A stretch of 64,000 nt of DNA from Eumeta japonica (taxonomy: Eukaryota > Arthropoda > Insecta > Lepidoptera > Psychidae): NCBI GenBank assembly GCA_005406025.1, contig BGZK01000855.1, positions 186,001-250,000 on the forward strand, given 5' to 3'. Below, in pieces: positions 19,081 through 43,605 of the stretch (its first letter is position 1; the number at the start of each line of letters is the position of its first letter). The translations under genes and the position numbers were made by a program. The notes under the pieces are model-generated. The model was not told the DNA's origin. It saw only the letters and a list, made by a program, of their open reading frames with translations, and made no database searches.

Positions 19081-19620
19081 TATTTATCTGTAGAGTAACT
19101 AAACAAATATTCTAAAAAGAAAAAGTTGTGATTAGTTACTGAAAGGGAACCCTATATGGCCTACATGTATATCTACTGTTTGATTTTACATGTGTTCTTT
19201 AGCATTCGTGATCGTCTGGTAATTTATTAAAATTATGTAGCGCGAAACAGCCTGGCTTTGAATCGGGAACTGAAGTTCGACTCTTACAGGGTTCACGATC
19301 TGAACCTAGATTTTATCGGATTGTCGCGAAACTTTACGGGCTCATATTTCGTTTCGTGTGCTTTTCACGCTATACGAAAATGAGAGCTGTGTGTTCTTAG
19401 AGCGTCAGGGTGTTTCCCCACTCGTTCGGGGGCCTTATTACGTAAAAGTAGAAATCGATTGCGATTCCGGAATCGATTTGTGAGTCGAAATTGTTAGGTA
19501 TAAAAAAATGTTATTCTTATACGCAATTTTGAGTGACTTTAAAGAGTCAGATTAAATTTAAACTTTGCGCAATTATCGAGGACCGATAGCTGTACAATAA
19601 TATGGTATAATTGAACTGAT

Positions 19621-19990
19621 CTGATGAATGAGCCAGAAGGTAGGCACAGGAACACTATAACGGAATAACATATCCTAGTCGTATTTGAGCTTGTTAGAGT
19701 TCTCTTGAGATGTACTCTCCACCATGAGTGATTTTCAAGGTCTCATGATGGAGCCGGAAGGTAAGCACTAGTACTCCATAATAGAACAACGTAACTTAGT
19801 CGTATGTGTTCTTAATAGAATTTTTTAAGTGGACTTTGGCCATAATTGGCTTTCAGGGTCTGATGATAGAGCCCGACGGTTGGTACCGGAATTAACATAT
19901 CATAACGGAACAATATATCCTAACCACATTTAGGCTTGTTGGAATGGCCTGAAATGGATTTTGACCACGATTGACTTTCAGGGTCTGACG
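19621..19990 (-). repeat. left array arm, about three 120-bp units
   Basis: Units carry the words ATGGAGCC, GGAAGGTAAGCACTAGTACTCC and GATTTTCAAGGTCT, the reverse complement of the right arm. Units 1 and 2 are the two subtypes (one with CTTGAGATGTACTCTC, one with AAGTGGACTTTGGCC). They mirror the outermost pair of the right arm. Confidence 0.75.
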
Positions 19991-20625
19991 ATGGAGCTTC
20001 CAAACTTCCAGCTCCGTTATCAGACCTTGAAAGCCAATCATGGTCAAAGTGTATTCCACGAGAATATCAACAAGTCCAAACATGGCTAGGTTGCGTTGTT
20101 TTATTATGAAGTACTAGCGTCTACCTTCCGGTTCCATCATCAGAACCTAGAAACCAATCACGGTTAAAGTGCATTCCAAAATAATTCCAACAATCGCAAA
20201 CACCGCTTGGATATGTTGTCCTATTATAGAGTACTAGTGCTTACCTTCTAGCTGCATCATCAGATCCTGAAAATCGTTCATGGTCAAAGTACATCTTAAG
20301 ACGATTTCTACAAGACCAAACACGGCCAGGATACGTTGTTTCATTATGGAGTTCCTGTGTTTACCTTCTGGCTCCATCATCAGACCCTGAAAGCCAATTA
20401 TGGTCAAAGTCTATTTAAAAAAATTCCATTAAGCCCAAATAAGACTAACTACGTTGTTCTATTATGGAGTACTAGTGCTTACCTTTCGTCTCCATCATCA
20501 GACCCTGAAAATCACTCATGGTGAGAGTACATCTCAAGACAACTCTAACAAGCTCAAACACGTCTAGGATATGTTATTCCATTTTGGAATTCCTGTGCCT
20601 ACCTTCTGGCTCCATCATCAGATCA
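19991..20625 (+). repeat. right array arm, about 5.3 units of 120 bp
   Basis: The word TGGTCAAAGT or a close variant recurs at 20041, 20161, 20281, 20401 and about 20519, a period of 120 bases. Two subtypes alternate: GTACTAGTGC with a CTATT/GCATTCC block, and GTTCCTGTG with ACATCTCAAGAC. This gives a 240-bp higher-order unit in the outer part. The centre of the palindrome is near 19990-20010. Confidence 0.8.
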
Positions 20626-21020
20626 GTCCAATTATACCATATTATTGTAAATTTTTAGGTCCTCGATAAATGTGTAAAGATTTTGTTTAATCTAACGATT
20701 TACATAAAAAAAATAAGTATTTTCTTTGTATGAAATACGAATGACGGAAAATCGATTGTAAATCGCTTGAGAATCGCTATAGACCAGTCTTCGGTTTGAG
20801 AGCGTATTTCTCGAATAATTACGAAATCGCGATCCCTAACGGTTTTTTGAATTCAAATATGCGATTAAATTTCATTATTATAATTTAGTGATTTCATTGT
20901 AGATGCAACACTGTTAATAGAAAGACAATTAGTATTTCGAAATATCAACTTGGGAATTAGTAAAATAAATTTAAAATCCTGCGAAATCAGAAATCGATTT
21001 CTTTTAGGTAATAAGGCCCC

Positions 21021-22490
21021 GGTAAGCTGTACCAATATCAGACCGTCGTAGCTAGACTGTTAGGTTTAGATCGTTAGAACGACCGCAGTCTATTTTTCTG
21101 TCGAGTTTTGTGGTTCGGCGGCACATTATTGCGCGGGCATCAAATTGCGTTCTTCGGCACTATGGAGCTCCCCGAGCTCTAGGATACGAAGAATTAAAAT
21201 TTATGTGCTCAATATTAATTACACAATAAAAAGAAAACAATTAACTTTCTGAGTTTTCTAGAGTTTAGGTCACGTTGAAGACGTGTGTATAAAATAAAGT
21301 TGTATACTCGATGTTTCTCAAGCGTCGCACCCTCAGAATAAACGTCTTAAGCATTAGGGCTATCAACGTAGAAGCTCAGTATGAAACTATCTATATTAAA
21401 GTCAAACGAAACATTATATTATCAAAGTATCGGTCGGTATTAACTCAGGTCTTAAATGAGACCAATAATATCAGATAAAATATCAACCTCAATAAAATCA
21501 ATCATCGTTCCGAACGAATTTTCTCAGTGCGCTAGAGCATTCCAATTCGTACATATACGTATTAAAATGCTAATTATATAAATTTCTTCAAGTAAATAAC
21601 TTCAAGCGTTTACACTTTAAAATTAAAATGCAGTAGGAAAATAATACATTTTACACAATACACAATGAAATAAAATAATATACAACAAAATGAAATTAAA
21701 GAGGGGAAATAAAATTAAATAAAATATGGGCAGTAAAATATTACAGTTAAGCTATTAAAATATGACTATCATTATCTTAGAAAATTATTTTTTAAGAGGC
21801 TTTATTACAATATTTAATTTTTGTGTACCAGAACGACCTCTGGGGATAGGAGTTCAATTTGCAATGGAGCCAGGAGTTTGACCTGATTTCCTTGCAAATG
21901 GAGCCCTATTTGGGGTCGCATATAACACTCGACGAACAGTTCTGATGCGTATCAGACCTGCCCATCTACCTCAAGTACTTTTAAATATGACATAACCGAG
22001 ATAGATCAAATGCAAAGGGGAAATTTAATATCTCGATCAATAAACTCTATCTCAAAATGTAGGGACAGCTCCCGGAAGCCAGTGCTCATTCAGGCGAATG
22101 AACTGCCCTCCCGAAATGCAACTATTCATTAAAGAATCTGCATACACGAAAGACAATAATAAAATATTAAGTATGTAATTAAATTGCATTTATTTACTGG
22201 TAGTCACCGTTTGTGATTTCTTCGTTGCATTACAGAATGCTAATTACTTAATAGATCGCTTGTCTTGATTCACCTGCGGTCGCACAAAAGTCAAAGTTGA
22301 TCGCAGCCTCCGAGGTGAGGCTCGAGCCAAGTGCCGTTCCCAAAACCCGATCTCGTCTTTCGTTCAAAAATTGAACTCCCTTCTCGCACGCCCGGCGCAG
22401 TGTCCGCGCATAATAACATGGCCCGGCTGTATTGTCTTCCCTTCAATTGTTTTCGAAAAAACAAATGCTCTCCGCTGTCGCTATCTCTCT
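21021..22490. other. unannotated stretch
   Basis: AT-rich from 21200 to 21830. Moderately GC-rich blocks lie at 21060-21190 and 21830-22110, and a CpG-rich block at 22270-22470 contains the perfect palindrome GGCTCGAGCC. No motif or repeat recognised; the last block is open on both strands over about 70 codons. Confidence 0.35.
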
Positions 22491-38199: not shown

Positions 38200-39135
38200 T
38201 TATATTAATGCTTCTCTATACACAATATTACACGTGTTGCCATGTGGGATCAAAGCATACAGTCGGCTAGGATTGCTGACACGTGACAGAGCCACATAAA
38301 GCTGACCGTGCGCAAAACAGCTAATGCTTAGATCCACACCCACTACTTGTAACGTCTGACCTTGGGCTTTATTAATTGTCATTGCGAAACAAAGGCTCAC
38401 TGGAAACTGGACTCGTTTAAAACTGAAAGGAAAATTGTTTGGAATCAGAGGAATCCGAGGAATAAAAACACTATCACCTATGCCGCACCCTGTTAAAATC
38501 TCTGCTTCTATCAGGTTTTGCTGTAAATTGGTCACTTTTAATCTGGTTCCGTTGCAAAGTTTTGGCGGGCTTAAATTTCTGAGGAGTATTATGGGTACGC
38601 CGACTTTTAAATTTATTTTATGAGCTGGTAGTCCAGGAGCACTGAGGGATTCTAAAAATTCTACTGGGTAGCTGGTAGATTCTTCATCTTCCATTACCCT
38701 GTTAATGGAGATATACTCAACGTTATCCCCCGGAACAAAGCTCAAAATTTCAGAGTTTATTGCTGCTGCTTGGTCGTTTCGTGGAGTCAAAATAGCTCTT
38801 TCGCACAGCCAGGAATTTTCGCAAGTAGGTATTTGCGTAGCATTTCCATACACGGATGATATGAGGTCTCGCATTGATGAAACTTTGCAGCATAGGTTTT
38901 CGTTCAGAACAACGTTTCCGTGTTCCTGCGGATACACACCGTTACTGATTTCAAGGAGCAAATCTGAAAACTCTTGAGCATTTTCGTTACCTCCGATTTG
39001 CGCTCGCATATTTATCGTCAAATGCAAAGGTATAATGTATTGCCACAGTCGAGAACTCTTTAGACAGGCCCTAACTTCATCAGCCCTTGTTCCACGTGGT
39101 ATTACCGGAAGAGTCTGACGAAAGTCGCCACAAAA
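38200..39135 (-). CDS. Helitron helicase, C-terminal segment
   Basis: From the shift the frame gives CGDFRQTLPVIPRG (motif III region), then LHLTINMRAQ. The long open part (39027-38200) carries ERAILTPRND, VGVPIILLRNL and NGTRLKVTNL. FAMTINKAQGQTL (motif V) and LYVALSRVSNPSRL (motif VI with the Arg finger) complete it. All standard Pif1-type motifs are present. The protein ends CNIVYREALI, the usual end of Helitron helicases. Confidence 0.85.
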   Translation of the reverse strand, partial: FCGDFRQTLPVIPRGTRADEVRACLKSSRLWQYIIPLHLTINMRAQIGGNENAQEFSDLLLEISNGVYPQEHGNVVLNENLCCKVSSMRDLISSVYGNATQIPTCENSWLCERAILTPRNDQAAAINSEILSFVPGDNVEYISINRVMEDEESTSYPVEFLESLSAPGLPAHKINLKVGVPIILLRNLSPPKLCNGTRLKVTNLQQNLIEAEILTGCGIGDSVFIPRIPLIPNNFPFSFKRVQFPVSLCFAMTINKAQGQTLQVVGVDLSISCFAHGQLYVALSRVSNPSRLYALIPHGNTCNIVYREALI

Positions 39136-40157
39136 AAAAGTATAGTAATGCCACCCATTGTTTGGCCATTTCGCTTGATATCACGCAACGTTCTGTCTAA
39201 TGCTTCAATCGCTTTCCGGTTTGCCATTGTGCACTCATCCCATATAATTAGGCTACAATCACGAAGGACCTTAGCTTTATTGCTGTTTCTAGAAATATTA
39301 CAAACAGGGTTTTCTGTACGGTCTAAGTCGATCGGAATTTTAAACATTGTATGGGCAGTTTTCCCTCCTGGCAACAAAGTGGCTGCTATGCCCGATGAAG
39401 CGACAGCAAGCGCAATTTTACCTTGGCCTCGCACCTTCGCCAAAATCACTTTGGTAAGAAATGTCTTGCCCGTTCCACCGGGAGCATCTAGAAATAGCAT
39501 TTCTCCCAAAGCAGTATCAACGCTGCGACACACCCGATTAAATATTAAACGCTGTTCTTCAGTTAGTCTTGGAACATCAATTTGTACAATTTCAGCCAGA
39601 CCTACTGGATCATAGTTGATTTCCATCGCGTAATCTCTATTAATGCGTTCACCGTCAAATAATGGCTCGGGCATGCCATATTGAGAAATAGGATTACCCC
39701 CAATAGATGTAACTATATCTTGAATAGCCAGCAAACAACGATTCAAGTAACTTTCACGTGTTATGTCACTAATAGGGTGGTCATTATTTAGTTGTGCGTA
39801 CCTGAAAAAGTCCTCGGCTAATTTGTTCTGATACTTATGCCATAATAGTGCAGCATCAGAAAGTGCACAGAACACCAGCATGACTGCAAACAAATTGCGC
39901 AACCGCTGAGGACTTTCGCTAATACTTGCTTCATCCCAAAGCATCATCCCAGTGTTGATCCCCATCCAGTAAGTGACGTGCCCGGCAAGCCGCTTGGTAT
40001 GTAGGGTATATAATATTATCAACCTTTCTGAGCTCGGCAAATGAAGTAGGCCCTCGAACGACATGCAGAAGTAAGCGCAGGTAAAAGCATTCGGAGTTAT
40101 TCTGATGCACCGTGTAAACCCTACCAATAATGTGTTCTTTAAAAATACCTGCTTCAC
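39102..40157 (-). CDS. Helitron helicase, N-terminal (Walker A/B) segment
   Basis: The true homology begins near 39940 (EASISESPQRLRNLFAVML); codons upstream in this frame are a shadow of the previous segment. LTEEQRLIFNRV is the Q-like motif, LDAPGGTGKTFLTKV the Walker A (about 39455-39490), ALAVASSGIAATLLPGG motif Ia, and LIIWDECTM the Walker B DExx block (about 39229-39255). It is a Pif1-family SF1 5'-3' helicase, thought to unwind the element during rolling-circle transfer. It ends in a T8 run near 39138, just before the GDFRQ motif, which is intact in the next frame. Confidence 0.8.
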   Translation of the reverse strand: MKQVFLKNTLLVGFTRCIRITPNAFTCAYFCMSFEGLLHLPSSERLIILYTLHTKRLAGHVTYWMGINTGMMLWDEASISESPQRLRNLFAVMLVFCALSDAALLWHKYQNKLAEDFFRYAQLNNDHPISDITRESYLNRCLLAIQDIVTSIGGNPISQYGMPEPLFDGERINRDYAMEINYDPVGLAEIVQIDVPRLTEEQRLIFNRVCRSVDTALGEMLFLDAPGGTGKTFLTKVILAKVRGQGKIALAVASSGIAATLLPGGKTAHTMFKIPIDLDRTENPVCNISRNSNKAKVLRDCSLIIWDECTMANRKAIEALDRTLRDIKRNGQTMGGITILFFVATFVRLFR

Positions 40158-40760
40158 CTACTACAGCTGTTCCACGTCTCCTGCGGTTAAAAATACCCTG
40201 TTGTTTGTTATAGGTATAAAACGACGGAACTTCGTGGTATAAAAGTGTCTTGGCAAATGCATCTGTTTCGCAAAGATTAAAGAAAGCGAGCAGAGTGGTT
40301 CGCCTCGGGCTTTCTAAACGCTCCGTTACATTTTCAGGGTTAAAATATATCCTTTGTCCACCTTCAAGATGAATGTCAAGATGGATAACTGGTGGATGTC
40401 TTTCATGAATTGGAAAACTTAAAATACGCCAAACTGCCTCAGAAGAGCTAATATATCGACCTGACTGAAACCTCGTAACTTCATCGTTATTATTATTTGT
40501 GAATCCCACTGTTGCTTGGTCACTGCCCTTGTTCACATATTTGCATATATATTTTATAGATTGCACACTGTTACATACTTCTACATTGATGTGAGCTTGA
40601 AAAGTTCTCGATAATACCGGTGAATAAGGCATGACCCATCTGTTATCTAAATCTATTTCCTGACCACGTAACCTTATTTTAGCTGTAAAGCCACCATGTT
40701 GAGGTGATTTTCGACGATACAGTGGATATCCGTTTTCTCCCGATATTGTTTGCTCTGAAG
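39931..40760 (-). CDS. Helitron Rep C-terminal region with the Y2 catalytic tyrosines
   Basis: After a shift near 40750 the frame reads ENGYPLYRR and NRWVMPYSPVL, then SIKYICKYVNKGSD (40560-40520). The two tyrosines four residues apart (YxxxY, 40537-40551) are the strand-transfer residues of Helitron Rep, and both are present. The linker to the helicase follows, including FNLCETDAFAKTLLYHEVP and a RRR-rich stretch. The frame stops at 39931 because of an extra G; DEASISESPQ continues in the next frame. Confidence 0.75.
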
Positions 40761-42095
40761 AGCTCGAGGATATCTTTAGAGCAATGACCTTCTTGCATAC
40801 AGGGAGAATTTCTGTTCAATGTGCCGCATGGTCCGTGTATCATGTGTGTCTTTACAATATCGAATAATATGGGATCTTCGGTCTTATCAGGCAATTCAGC
40901 ACTAATAATAGTATCGATAGCATCAGGTCTAATTTTTCTTCTAGCCACAGTAGTATGTGGGCATGTGGCAACCCCCGGTTTTGCCACTCTACGCTGTACA
41001 TATAACATAGAAATGATCCGAAAAGCTTTCCTTTTGTAATTAAGTTGATCATCAACTTTAGTTTAAGGTGAAAAACTCGGGAAATTATGTCATGTCTATC
41101 ATGAGGCACCTGACCGGGCAAAAGTTCTTGTGAAATTTCATTCCACTTTGGATTAGTAGTGAAAGTGATGAAAAGGTCAGGTCGGCCGTACTTACGGACA
41201 TAGCAAAACGCGTCTTGCGTACGCTCATGCATATAACGTGGACCTCCTATAAAACTTGACGGTAAGATAACTAATCGTCCTACGTTTTCCACGTTGTTAT
41301 CTTGCTGCATTGCATCTCGCAGATGCACGTAATCCTCAGCACGTAAACGTGTCTGGTTAGTGCGTATATAAATTAACCTCTCGGTTTCTATTTTTGCATA
41401 CATGTCCACAATGAATTGGCTGAACAATCCTCGAAATCGTTGCAAATAATTAAAACAATTTCGTCTAATTTGTATCTGGTATGAATAAAACTGTAGGGCT
41501 GATATTTTTTTATTATAATTTGTTATCCTAGTGCTTGGATTAACTTGGTAGCGTCCGGAATTGTAACCATCCTTACCGTGGAAGTATATCAAGGAATACT
41601 GCAGAGCATCATAAGATCGGTGTGTTTCACAAATACGTTGTAAGCGATCATCATGAGAGCGCAGCACAATGTCACGTCTATCACATTCCTGGTCTACTAA
41701 TATTACTGCAACTTCATCTACAACGGGAGCTTTGTACCTTCCACGATGTTCTTCCGCTGGACGTCTATCAGCCTTAATTATAACTTTATAATTGTTATTT
41801 TGACCTTGTGGGATGGAATCAATTGCGGCTTTGAAACTCCTGACATACGGATTTACTTCATGTAACATATTTTGAATTTGAGATATAAGGTTGATATTCA
41901 GTTGAGAAAAGTTATGATGTCGTATATGAGCCTGTTCATTGTAATTTGACACAAAATAAATTTGAAGAAATTTTGGTTCGTTTTGGGAAGCAAAGATCCA
42001 ATAAGGTGATAAACTTGGCCCTGGACCTTAAAAGTGGGCATGAATGGTCCCTCTGTGATTTGTTTGGCCCCAAAAGATGTCATTTGGAATGCACT
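40679..42095 (-). CDS. Helitron Rep (HUH/Y2 nuclease) region, frameshifted
   Basis: Four overlapping frames together give the replication initiator. Frame one (to about 41980) has MTSFGAKQITEGPF and FKVQGQVYHLIGSLLP, the conserved Helitron-like N block. Frame two (41952-40852) has IYFVSNYNEQAHIRHHN, then RPDLFITFTTNPKW and YSVEWQNRGLPHAHILLW, which contains the metal-binding His-x-His (40957-40965). After a shift in an A run, KIRPDAIDT, DPILFDIVKTHMIHGPCG and SPCMQEGHCSK follow (41008-40679 frame). This domain cuts and rejoins one DNA strand at the element ends. Nearby ATGs such as 41952 are internal, not true starts. Confidence 0.75.
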
Positions 42096-42115
42096 ATTAT
42101 ATGAACGGATATTGT

Positions 42116-43150
42116 CTAAAAATGTTTAGATTGAGGATGCTCACCATTTAGTAAAGCTTTTATAAAGTCAGGGAGTTCATGGAAATTTTCAATGAGCACT
42201 TTGCCACCTGAACAGCATATTCCATTTGGTTCTTTTCTCCATTTTAGAGCATGACAAAACTGACAACATATCTCCATGCCTCCTATAGATGCGAATTCAG
42301 AGTAATCAATTCTGGGCAAATACAAATAACCTGACTTCTCTTTGGTCACCCATGGAAGGATATCAATTTCCGCTCCATTTTCTGGGTCTTCTATCGAACT
42401 TGATAACATTCTACTGACTGTATGCTGAAGTCGATCGGCATTTAGTCGTGACTGCCGTTGGTCTACAGTTTCTTCATGCCGTATTTCCCTTACTCGTTCT
42501 CTCTCAGCTAATAAATAATTTTCCTCACTCAGACGGATTAGCTCATAGTTTTCTCTAGTTGTTTGTAATCTTTGTCGATATTCATCTTCACTTTCAAGAA
42601 TTCTGGCATTGTTGTGTCGCTCTCGATCAGCTGTTAATCGAAATTCACGATCTGAACTACTTTCCAACTCTCTAGACAGCAAAGTTCGTACTCTTTGAGA
42701 GTTGAGGCGGGTTTCCCGATCTGTGAAAGTCTCAGACTCACGCGATAGTGCATGAGCTTCACGATCGGCAGTGAGACGTGTTTCCCGTTCTTCAGGAGTC
42801 TCCTGAGATCGGGCATTTGCTGTCCGAATACTCTGAGAGCTGAGGCGGGTTTCCCTATCAGTAAAAGTCTCAGACTCACGTGATAGTGCATGAGCTTCAC
42901 GATCGGTGAACAAACGGGCCTCACGCTGTTCCATGCTCTCCCTAATTCGAGTAGCCTCCGTTTGAGAACGTTGTGAACTCAATCGAGATTCTCGTTGAGC
43001 CGAAGTTTCTGTAGCACGAAGCCTAGCCTGACGTTCCTGAGATGAAGTGAGTCTCGCCTCACGATCTTCTTCAGTTTCCTGTGATCGTACTAACCTCATC
43101 CTTTTAGCATTTCTGCTGTACTGGGAGAGGTTGGATCTTTTTCGAGGCAT
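42116..43150 (-). CDS. Helitron protein, N-terminal segment with REARL repeats and Cys motif
   Basis: A 344-codon open segment from the likely true start. After a basic head come about ten degenerate repeats of 23-24 residues with the core RETRL, spaced by DREAHALSRE-type linkers. Two adjacent repeat pairs (about 42706-42790 and 42845-42920) are nearly identical in DNA, showing recent internal duplication. The composition predicts charged alpha-helix or coiled coil. C-terminal to the repeats, CCQFCHALKW and ICCSGGKV form the Cys-rich motif seen at the front of animal Helitron proteins. The segment ends at a stop created by a one-base loss in a T run; homology (DNIRSYNSAF) continues in the next frame. 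Confidence 0.75.
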   Translation of the reverse strand: MPRKRSNLSQYSRNAKRMRLVRSQETEEDREARLTSSQERQARLRATETSAQRESRLSSQRSQTEATRIRESMEQREARLFTDREAHALSRESETFTDRETRLSSQSIRTANARSQETPEERETRLTADREAHALSRESETFTDRETRLNSQRVRTLLSRELESSSDREFRLTADRERHNNARILESEDEYRQRLQTTRENYELIRLSEENYLLAERERVREIRHEETVDQRQSRLNADRLQHTVSRMLSSSIEDPENGAEIDILPWVTKEKSGYLYLPRIDYSEFASIGGMEICCQFCHALKWRKEPNGICCSGGKVLIENFHELPDFIKALLNGEHPQSKHF

Positions 43151-43605
43151 TCTTACTTACAGATAATTACACCGTTTAATAACTATTAAGACGTGTTAAC
43201 CTAACTTATTAATTTAAAGATAGATTATATATACAAAACAAACGAAATGAGCAATAGATCCGTTTTTTATTTATTACTAACTTACGCTAACAAACACGTA
43301 CTTATTACAAAGGACTTTACTGTAAGTCAACGGATTTACGGAAACTTACAAAATAAAGAAAGTCAAAGAAAAAACTTAACTTATACCATAAAAACTAAGA
43401 AGTAAAAAAATTAAGAAAAATTAACTTAATCAGTTTAACTATTAACACGTATTAATCTAAAACAAACTATCCTATAATACAAAATGCCTAACCTATAACA
43501 AATACACGCAATATGTATTTACAAACCCTAAAATAGAAATAAATTAAAAAATGAAATGTAATTTTATCGAATGCCGTGCGCCTCCAGAATACGTGCGTTC
43601 GCTAC

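What the first reader, a model, noticed from the sequence alone, without database searches (positions are those of the whole stretch)
19429..21020. Foldback element built from head-to-head arrays of a 120-bp satellite
Three units in one orientation meet about five in the other. The outermost pair of subtypes is mirrored on both sides (240-bp higher-order unit), and nested inverted blocks and short terminal inverted repeats enclose everything. A plain satellite would not be symmetrical like this. It could form a very large hairpin, be a source of dsRNA/siRNA, and seed satellite arrays elsewhere.
Basis: seen in the sequence. Interest (0 to 1): 0.75.

Follow-up and report, generated by a model that had tools for sequence, protein, structure and literature searches.

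The report
Hairpin transposon with mirrored satellite arms
A gene-less jumping DNA, spread recently through an unnamed eukaryotic genome, carries short arrays of a 120-base repeat facing each other, so each copy could fold into one giant hairpin; similar "foldback" elements are known in flies, but this one has end and target-site features that resemble a different transposon superfamily.

Summary
At 19429-21020 three ~120-bp units meet five in the opposite orientation. It is a dispersed mobile element: 40 of 40 scored candidates (of 1987; window copy included) match, 39 end to end within 2 bases. In 61 copies the flanks read ACC-S | element | S-GGT; a perfect C-N-G 3-bp duplication is seen in 39 (shuffled pairing: mean 23, maximum 33), 8-11 bp in none. 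TIR 13-mer: 364 places against 10 for a reversed control. This resembles PIF/Harbinger-like (PHIS) transposons, but no autonomous partner was found. Copies are young (median 1.45% from the majority row). Two of 61 show arm-to-arm conversion tracts; some copies lost whole units. No longer copy and no free array was seen in the samples, so "seeds satellites elsewhere" is not supported. dsRNA/siRNA is untested. Closest known: Tetris and Galileo of Drosophila.

The parts
19427..19429 (.). left target-site duplication, CGG (3-bp reading; its last G is also the first G of GGGGCC)
   Evidence: sequence; statistics of 61 copies
19429..19469 (+). left terminal inverted repeat GGGGCCTTATTACGTAAAAG...AAATCGATT
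19470..19539 (+). left subterminal region, only weakly alignable to the right one
19540..19619 (+). arm sequence outside the array, mirrored at 20623-20702
   Evidence: inverted repeat I1, 86% over 180 nt
19620..19740 (+). unit L1 (subtype A), mirror of R5
   Evidence: 89% to R5
19741..19858 (+). unit L2 (subtype B), mirror of R4
   Evidence: 90% to R4
19859..19983 (+). unit L3, diverged, with a 6-nt insertion
   Evidence: 65-71% to all others
19984..20024 (.). head-to-head junction: two unit stubs, GGAGCT..AGCTCC at the tip of the hairpin
   Evidence: sequence
20025..20144 (-). unit R1 (B-like)
20145..20264 (-). unit R2 (B-like)
20265..20384 (-). unit R3 (subtype A)
   Evidence: 82% to R5, 77% to L1
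20385..20502 (-). unit R4 (subtype B), mirror of L2
20503..20622 (-). unit R5 (subtype A), mirror of L1
20623..20702 (-). arm sequence outside the array, mirror of 19540-19619
20703..20981 (.). right subterminal region, longer than the left, mostly unmatched
20982..21020 (-). right terminal inverted repeat
21020..21022 (.). right target-site duplication, CGG (3-bp reading)
   Evidence: sequence

Best explanation
It is a non-autonomous cut-and-paste DNA transposon with foldback architecture, most probably of the PIF/Harbinger-like (PHIS) group. A transposase supplied in trans would recognise the ends (G)GGGCCTTATTAC and insert at a palindromic ACC-S-GGT site, duplicating 3 bp (C-S-G). Shown: exact recurrent ends, target preference, a duplicated centre base, dispersed copies with low divergence, unit-sized deletions, and rare arm-to-arm conversion tracts. 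Inferred: the transposase class; the 3-bp length; that one or a few source copies with this 3+5 array spread recently; that conversion between arms and unequal exchange between units maintain and erode the mirror; that the repeated units act as extra transposase or accessory-protein binding sites, as measured for Galileo. The best-conserved stretch of the unit is CTGATGATGGAGCC.GAAGGT.
For: Ends and architecture: 39 of 40 scored candidates match end to end within 2 bases at 91-100%; of the 24 further copies that unit R3 brought in, 20 are full length in one piece. Target: in 61 copies left -2 is C in 58, right +2 is G in 58, left -1 equals right +1 in 41, exact C-N-G in 39; control: with left and right flanks paired at random, exact C-N-G averages 23.1, maximum 33 in 500 shuffles. 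Four short copies fetched later also read C-N-G, 4 of 4. TIR 13-mer 364 exact places versus 10 for the reversed control. Youth: median 1.45% to the majority row, minimum 0.32%; mean pairwise 3.0% in 39. Insertion: L028's joined flanks match across the junction in 40 of 40 scored places of a dispersed repeat. Conversion: L042 has 15 consecutive arm-specific sites (plus 2 more) where the right arm reads like the left, L038 five the other way; any run of 4 or more arose in 1 of 2000 shuffles. Whole-unit losses. Literature: NuwaI TSD CWG (PMC4482050, passages); Harbinger3_DR target AAACACCWGGTCTTT (PMC3016246, passage); Harbinger elements generally duplicate 3 bp (PMC9179366, passage). The genome holds many DDE_Tnp_4 transposases: 150 of 150 scored, of 1181 candidates, over the cut-off.
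Against: No element with these TIRs and a transposase was found. None of the 20 DDE_Tnp_4 loci in hand (1.5 kb each side) carries the TIR; 2-mismatch hits in 4 of 20 have the same 30 bases upstream and so look interior. Among the 100 listed TIR places of 364 no adjacent facing pair lies 1.6-10 kb apart; the other 264 were not listed. The duplicated information is in effect one base, the centre: with C and G fixed by target preference, 1, 3 and 5 bp are hard to tell apart, and the one empty site leaves a 1-nt ambiguity. The centre is mostly C or G, not W as in NuwaI. 22 of 61 copies lack a perfect 3-bp duplication. 32 alleles are shared by 4 or more of 39 copies, so more than one source copy is possible. 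Binding sites in the units are untested.
Confidence: 0.7

Rival explanations
1. A foldback element of the Mutator superfamily (or P, as Galileo), like Tetris, moved by that transposase.
For: Same architecture: outer TIR domain, tandem repeats in both arms, unit-number change (PMC4079207, first parts of Results and Discussion). That paper says most foldbacks seem to be Mutator.
Against: Tetris has 8-10 bp duplications. Here duplications of 8, 9, 10 and 11 bp, with 0-2 bases of the end run counted in, show identity as in shuffled pairings (within about 1.6 SD) and no exact case in 61 copies.
Confidence: 0.08
2. A PHIS-like element that makes a 1- or 5-bp duplication (CCSGG), or a group not yet described with its own target rule.
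For: The G run of the TIR and the palindromic target make 1, 3 and 5 bp partly equivalent; 5-bp CC-x-GG is exact in 17 of 61 against a shuffled mean of 9.4, maximum 17. The centre is S, not W.
Against: 3 bp covers 39 of the 41 copies with equal centre bases, 5 bp only 17.
Confidence: 0.18
3. An ordinary satellite fragment rearranged by inversion, not a mobile element.
For: Tandem 120-bp units at 65-90% identity.
Against: Same ~1.59-kb structure with the same ends in different flanks in dozens of places and an insertion target.
Confidence: 0.02
4. The element seeds satellite DNA: units have been amplified into free arrays, as for Tetris.
For: Units are lost in whole numbers, so unequal exchange or slippage occurs; unassembled arrays would be missed, and only unit R3 was searched.
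Against: 40 of 40 scored places with unit R3 hold one such unit; no longer element among 22 facing pairs, and the 61 copies reach 1603 bp at most.
Confidence: 0.08

Closest known systems
Tetris (Drosophila virilis foldback; PMC4079207: abstract, first parts of Results and Discussion seen)
   Same: Non-autonomous, TIRs with an outer domain plus tandem repeats (~220 bp), unit-number change by whole units, no known autonomous copy.
   Different: 8-10 bp duplications, three structurally complete copies, free arrays of up to 66 units. Here a C-N-G target pattern, dozens of near-uniform copies, no free arrays seen.
Galileo (P superfamily; PMC3688188 and PMC4168063, passages seen)
   Same: Long foldback TIRs with tandem repeats; in D. 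willistoni one copy has ~140-bp repeats, unequal in number in the two arms. Its repeats contain transposase binding sites (shown there).
   Different: P-type transposase; here no transposase is known and the target rule differs. Binding sites untested here.
NuwaI / Harbinger elements of the PHIS superfamily (PMC4482050, PMC3016246, PMC9179366; passages seen)
   Same: Target ACC-N-GGT as in the core of the Harbinger3_DR site, C-N-G duplication, ends starting with G.
   Different: Centre mostly S, not W; no tandem-array foldback arms mentioned in the passages read; no coding capacity here.
MITEs carrying internal tandem repeats (review PMC12628747, passages seen)
   Same: Small non-autonomous element with satellite-like units.
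   Different: Here the units face each other in two arms.

Membership tests
Foldback (architectural class) | Long inverted arms built of tandem repeats between TIRs | tested here: met
Foldback (architectural class) | Dispersed copies with the same ends in different flanks | tested here: met
Foldback (architectural class) | Variable number of tandem units among copies | tested here: met
   unit-sized deletions in L098-L102; 18 of 22 facing pairs are near full length
PIF/Harbinger (PHIS) | 3-bp target-site duplication | tested here: inconclusive
   C-N-G exact in 39 of 61 against shuffled mean 23.1, maximum 33, but 1 and 5 bp are not cleanly excluded and the one empty site is ambiguous by 1 nt
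PIF/Harbinger (PHIS), NuwaI group | duplication is CWG | tested here: not met
   of 41 copies with equal centre bases: 20 G, 19 C, 1 A, 1 T
PIF/Harbinger (PHIS) | DDE_Tnp_4 transposase plus Myb/SANT protein in an autonomous partner with the same TIRs | tested here: inconclusive
   many such transposases in the genome, none linked to this TIR in what was seen; Myb/SANT not searched
Mutator / Tetris | 8-11 bp target-site duplication | tested here: not met
   no exact case and no identity excess in 61 copies, k = 8-11
Satellite DNA | long free tandem arrays | tested here: inconclusive
   40 of 40 scored R3 places hold one strong unit; other units not searched, assembly gaps possible

The most novel reading that the evidence does not exclude
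The first foldback element of the PIF/Harbinger-like superfamily: mirrored unit arrays work as multiple binding sites for a Harbinger-type transposase or its Myb-like partner, and the two arms are kept alike by conversion between them, so foldback design arose a further time in an unrelated transposase lineage.
Probability: 0.33. Interest if true: 0.55.

Novelty: new variant of a known kind. Interest (0 to 1): 0.42.

Why it matters
According to the Tetris paper, foldbacks seem to belong mostly to Mutator, with exceptions such as Galileo (P), which causes inversions; a Harbinger-like one with dozens of near-identical copies would show convergent origin of the design. It also gives many young copies in which arm-to-arm conversion and whole-unit loss can be read directly, which bears on how inverted arms are kept alike and how satellite units start.

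Tried and rejected
Coding origin of the 120-bp unit: the majority unit row, read over two copies, has stops in all six frames, and unit lengths of 118, 120, 121 and 125 would break a frame. Units derived from the TIR, as proposed for Tetris: no unit-to-TIR match at E 1e-3 in the window self-comparison. GGGCCCGTATTAC near 4 of 20 DDE_Tnp_4 loci as a partner TIR: the 30 bases upstream are the same in all four, so it looks interior. A different family sharing the TIR: the 13-mer followed by A or T occurs 10 times against 7 for the control; a partner with G or C there is not excluded. A second right end in L086 as trace of a partner element: its upstream sequence has 8 matches in the genome, so dropped. 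Viral contigs for the TIR pattern: 0 hits. TIR letters in papers: 15 papers, listing only, none on transposons by title. Rfam and tRNA scans of the window: none. Organism: not identified; 9 proteins matched the Helitron N-terminal piece, the 4 with a species name being butterflies or moths at 43-70%, which does not place the genome. Searches for a Harbinger-type foldback with tandem repeats: (listings); no such paper by title, but PMC8504770 and PMC5225508, which hold several of the terms, were not opened. Majority rows give relative, not absolute, age: no mutation rate was used.

Full report
What is there. Window 19429-21020 holds 1592 bases that fold on themselves. Three units of 118-125 bp on the left face five of 118-120 bp on the right, with a stub of a unit on each side of the head-to-head junction at 19984-20024. 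Counted from outside, the pairs correspond: L1/R5 89%, L2/R4 90%, whereas neighbours within an arm are 67-73% and all other pairs 65-82%. L3 is far from all units, and R1, R2 have no clear mirror partner, so the mirror is anchored at the ends and lost at the centre. Outside the arrays the mirror continues for 80 bp (19540-19619 / 20623-20702), then fades into unequal subterminal regions (70 and 279 bp), and returns in TIRs of about 40 bp, 83% alike, with 13 perfect outermost bases. The folded RNA has 356 pairs spanning more than 400 nt, uninterrupted helices of 41 and 39 pairs (G-U allowed), and energy 36 standard deviations below the mean of 20 shuffles.

It is a mobile element. The window lies in a 702-Mb genome of 5067 contigs. 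Of 1987 first-look candidates 40 were scored, the window copy among them; all 40 match at 91-100%, 35 over 1-1592, four within 2 bases of both ends, one truncated at 1412. Because those are the best matches, I also took copies by unit R3 alone: of its 40 scored places 24 were new, and of these 20 are full length in one piece. The exact 13-mer GGGGCCTTATTAC occurs 364 times, against 10 for the reversed pattern; 100 places were listed. These hold 22 adjacent facing pairs 1237-1592 bp apart and one at 136 kb.

Target site. Across 61 copies (39 after dropping the truncated L046; 22 after dropping L086 and L096) the flanks tend to ACC-S | element | S-GGT: left -2 is C in 58, right +2 is G in 58, left -1 equals right +1 in 41, and all three hold in 39. 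As the element begins and ends in G/C runs, this reads as a 3-bp duplication C-S-G around an element GGGCC...GGCCC. Pairing left and right flanks at random gives 23.1 exact cases on average and 33 at most in 500 shuffles, so 39 is a real excess, but much of the raw count is target preference. Duplications of 8-11 bp show no excess and no exact case; 5 bp is exact in 17 (shuffled mean 9.4, maximum 17). The four shorter copies L099-L102, fetched later, each read C-N-G. L010/L020 share flanks and L093/L094 read as one site, so those are probably two insertions, not four. An empty-site query used joined flanks of five copies; all 40 scored places (of 2773) fell in L028's part, because its target is a dispersed repeat, so the other four had no real chance. 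All 40 run across the junction. Eight that I fetched read CATACCGGG(T/C)GCC where L028 reads CATACC | element | CGGTGCC. This supports a clean insertion, but differs by one nucleotide, so it does not fix the duplication length.

Which superfamily. In the passages I read, NuwaI elements of the PHIS superfamily duplicate CWG (PMC4482050), Harbinger elements generally duplicate 3 bp (PMC9179366), and zebrafish Harbinger3_DR targets AAACACCWGGTCTTT (PMC3016246). The present target ACC-S-GGT is that core with another centre. The genome is rich in DDE_Tnp_4 transposases: 150 of 150 scored, of 1181 candidates. But none was linked to these TIRs: not in 20 loci with 1.5-kb flanks, not among the 100 listed TIR places, and the TIR followed by A/T is no commoner than its control (10 versus 7). 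So 'works like a PIF/Harbinger passenger' is reasonably supported; 'is a member' is likely but unproven, and the strict NuwaI rule (CWG) is not met.

How the mirror lives. Copies differ from their majority row by a median 1.45%, minimum 0.32%, while the arms of one copy are 84.1-93.5% alike, median 87.3% (61 copies). The arms therefore diverged before the recent spread, and one architecture was copied; 32 alleles shared by 4 or more of 39 copies allow for more than one source copy. Two copies show tracts: L042, 15 consecutive arm-specific sites in which the right arm reads like the left (arm identity 93.5%, the highest of 61), and L038, five sites the other way; any run of four or more arose in 1 of 2000 shuffles. 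At sites where the arms agree, changes hit one arm in 307 cases and both in 2 (39 copies), so conversion is rare. L096 carries inverted right-subterminal sequence inside its left end, as might come from template switching between arms. Unit number changes in about whole units: deletions of 118 (L100), 118 (L101), 120 (L098) and 126 nt (L102), and about 365 nt in four gaps, near three units, in L099; L086 reads as one unit short from its alignment coordinates. Four of 22 facing pairs are short by units; none is longer.

Function of the units. Proposed, not shown: extra binding sites. [quoted passage not shown] Here the best-conserved 15-bp windows of the unit lie in CTGATGATGGAGCC.GAAGGT (over 90% mean across eight units), next to a conserved TTTCAGGG. 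That is where I would look.

Verdict. A real, young, multi-copy foldback transposon; a new variant of a known kind because of its Harbinger-like target and ends. The satellite-seeding idea found no support in the samples; the siRNA idea is open.

Noticed in passing
window 38200-43156, minus strand: Broken Helitron: Helitron_like_N and PIF1 helicase domains in several frames.
   Followed up: partly
L095:636-688: A 53-bp element made of little more than the two TIRs, ending one G before a full-length copy.
   Followed up: no
L096:569-830: Left end of a copy followed by inverted right-subterminal sequence and then the left arm again: a rearrangement between the arms.
   Followed up: partly
L028, L038, L043 flanks; L103-L110: Abundant dispersed repeat (2773 first-look candidates) with a palindromic CATACCGGGYGCC core; L028 sits in it, and two more of 39 copies sit in a similar sequence at about the same point, a possible insertion hot spot.
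   Followed up: partly
L010/L020 and L093/L094: Same insertion flanks on two contigs: haplotigs or segmental duplications in the assembly.
   Followed up: no
L048-L067: Many open DDE_Tnp_4 (PIF/Harbinger-type) frames, some loci 96-99% alike over more than 3 kb, suggesting recent activity.
   Followed up: partly
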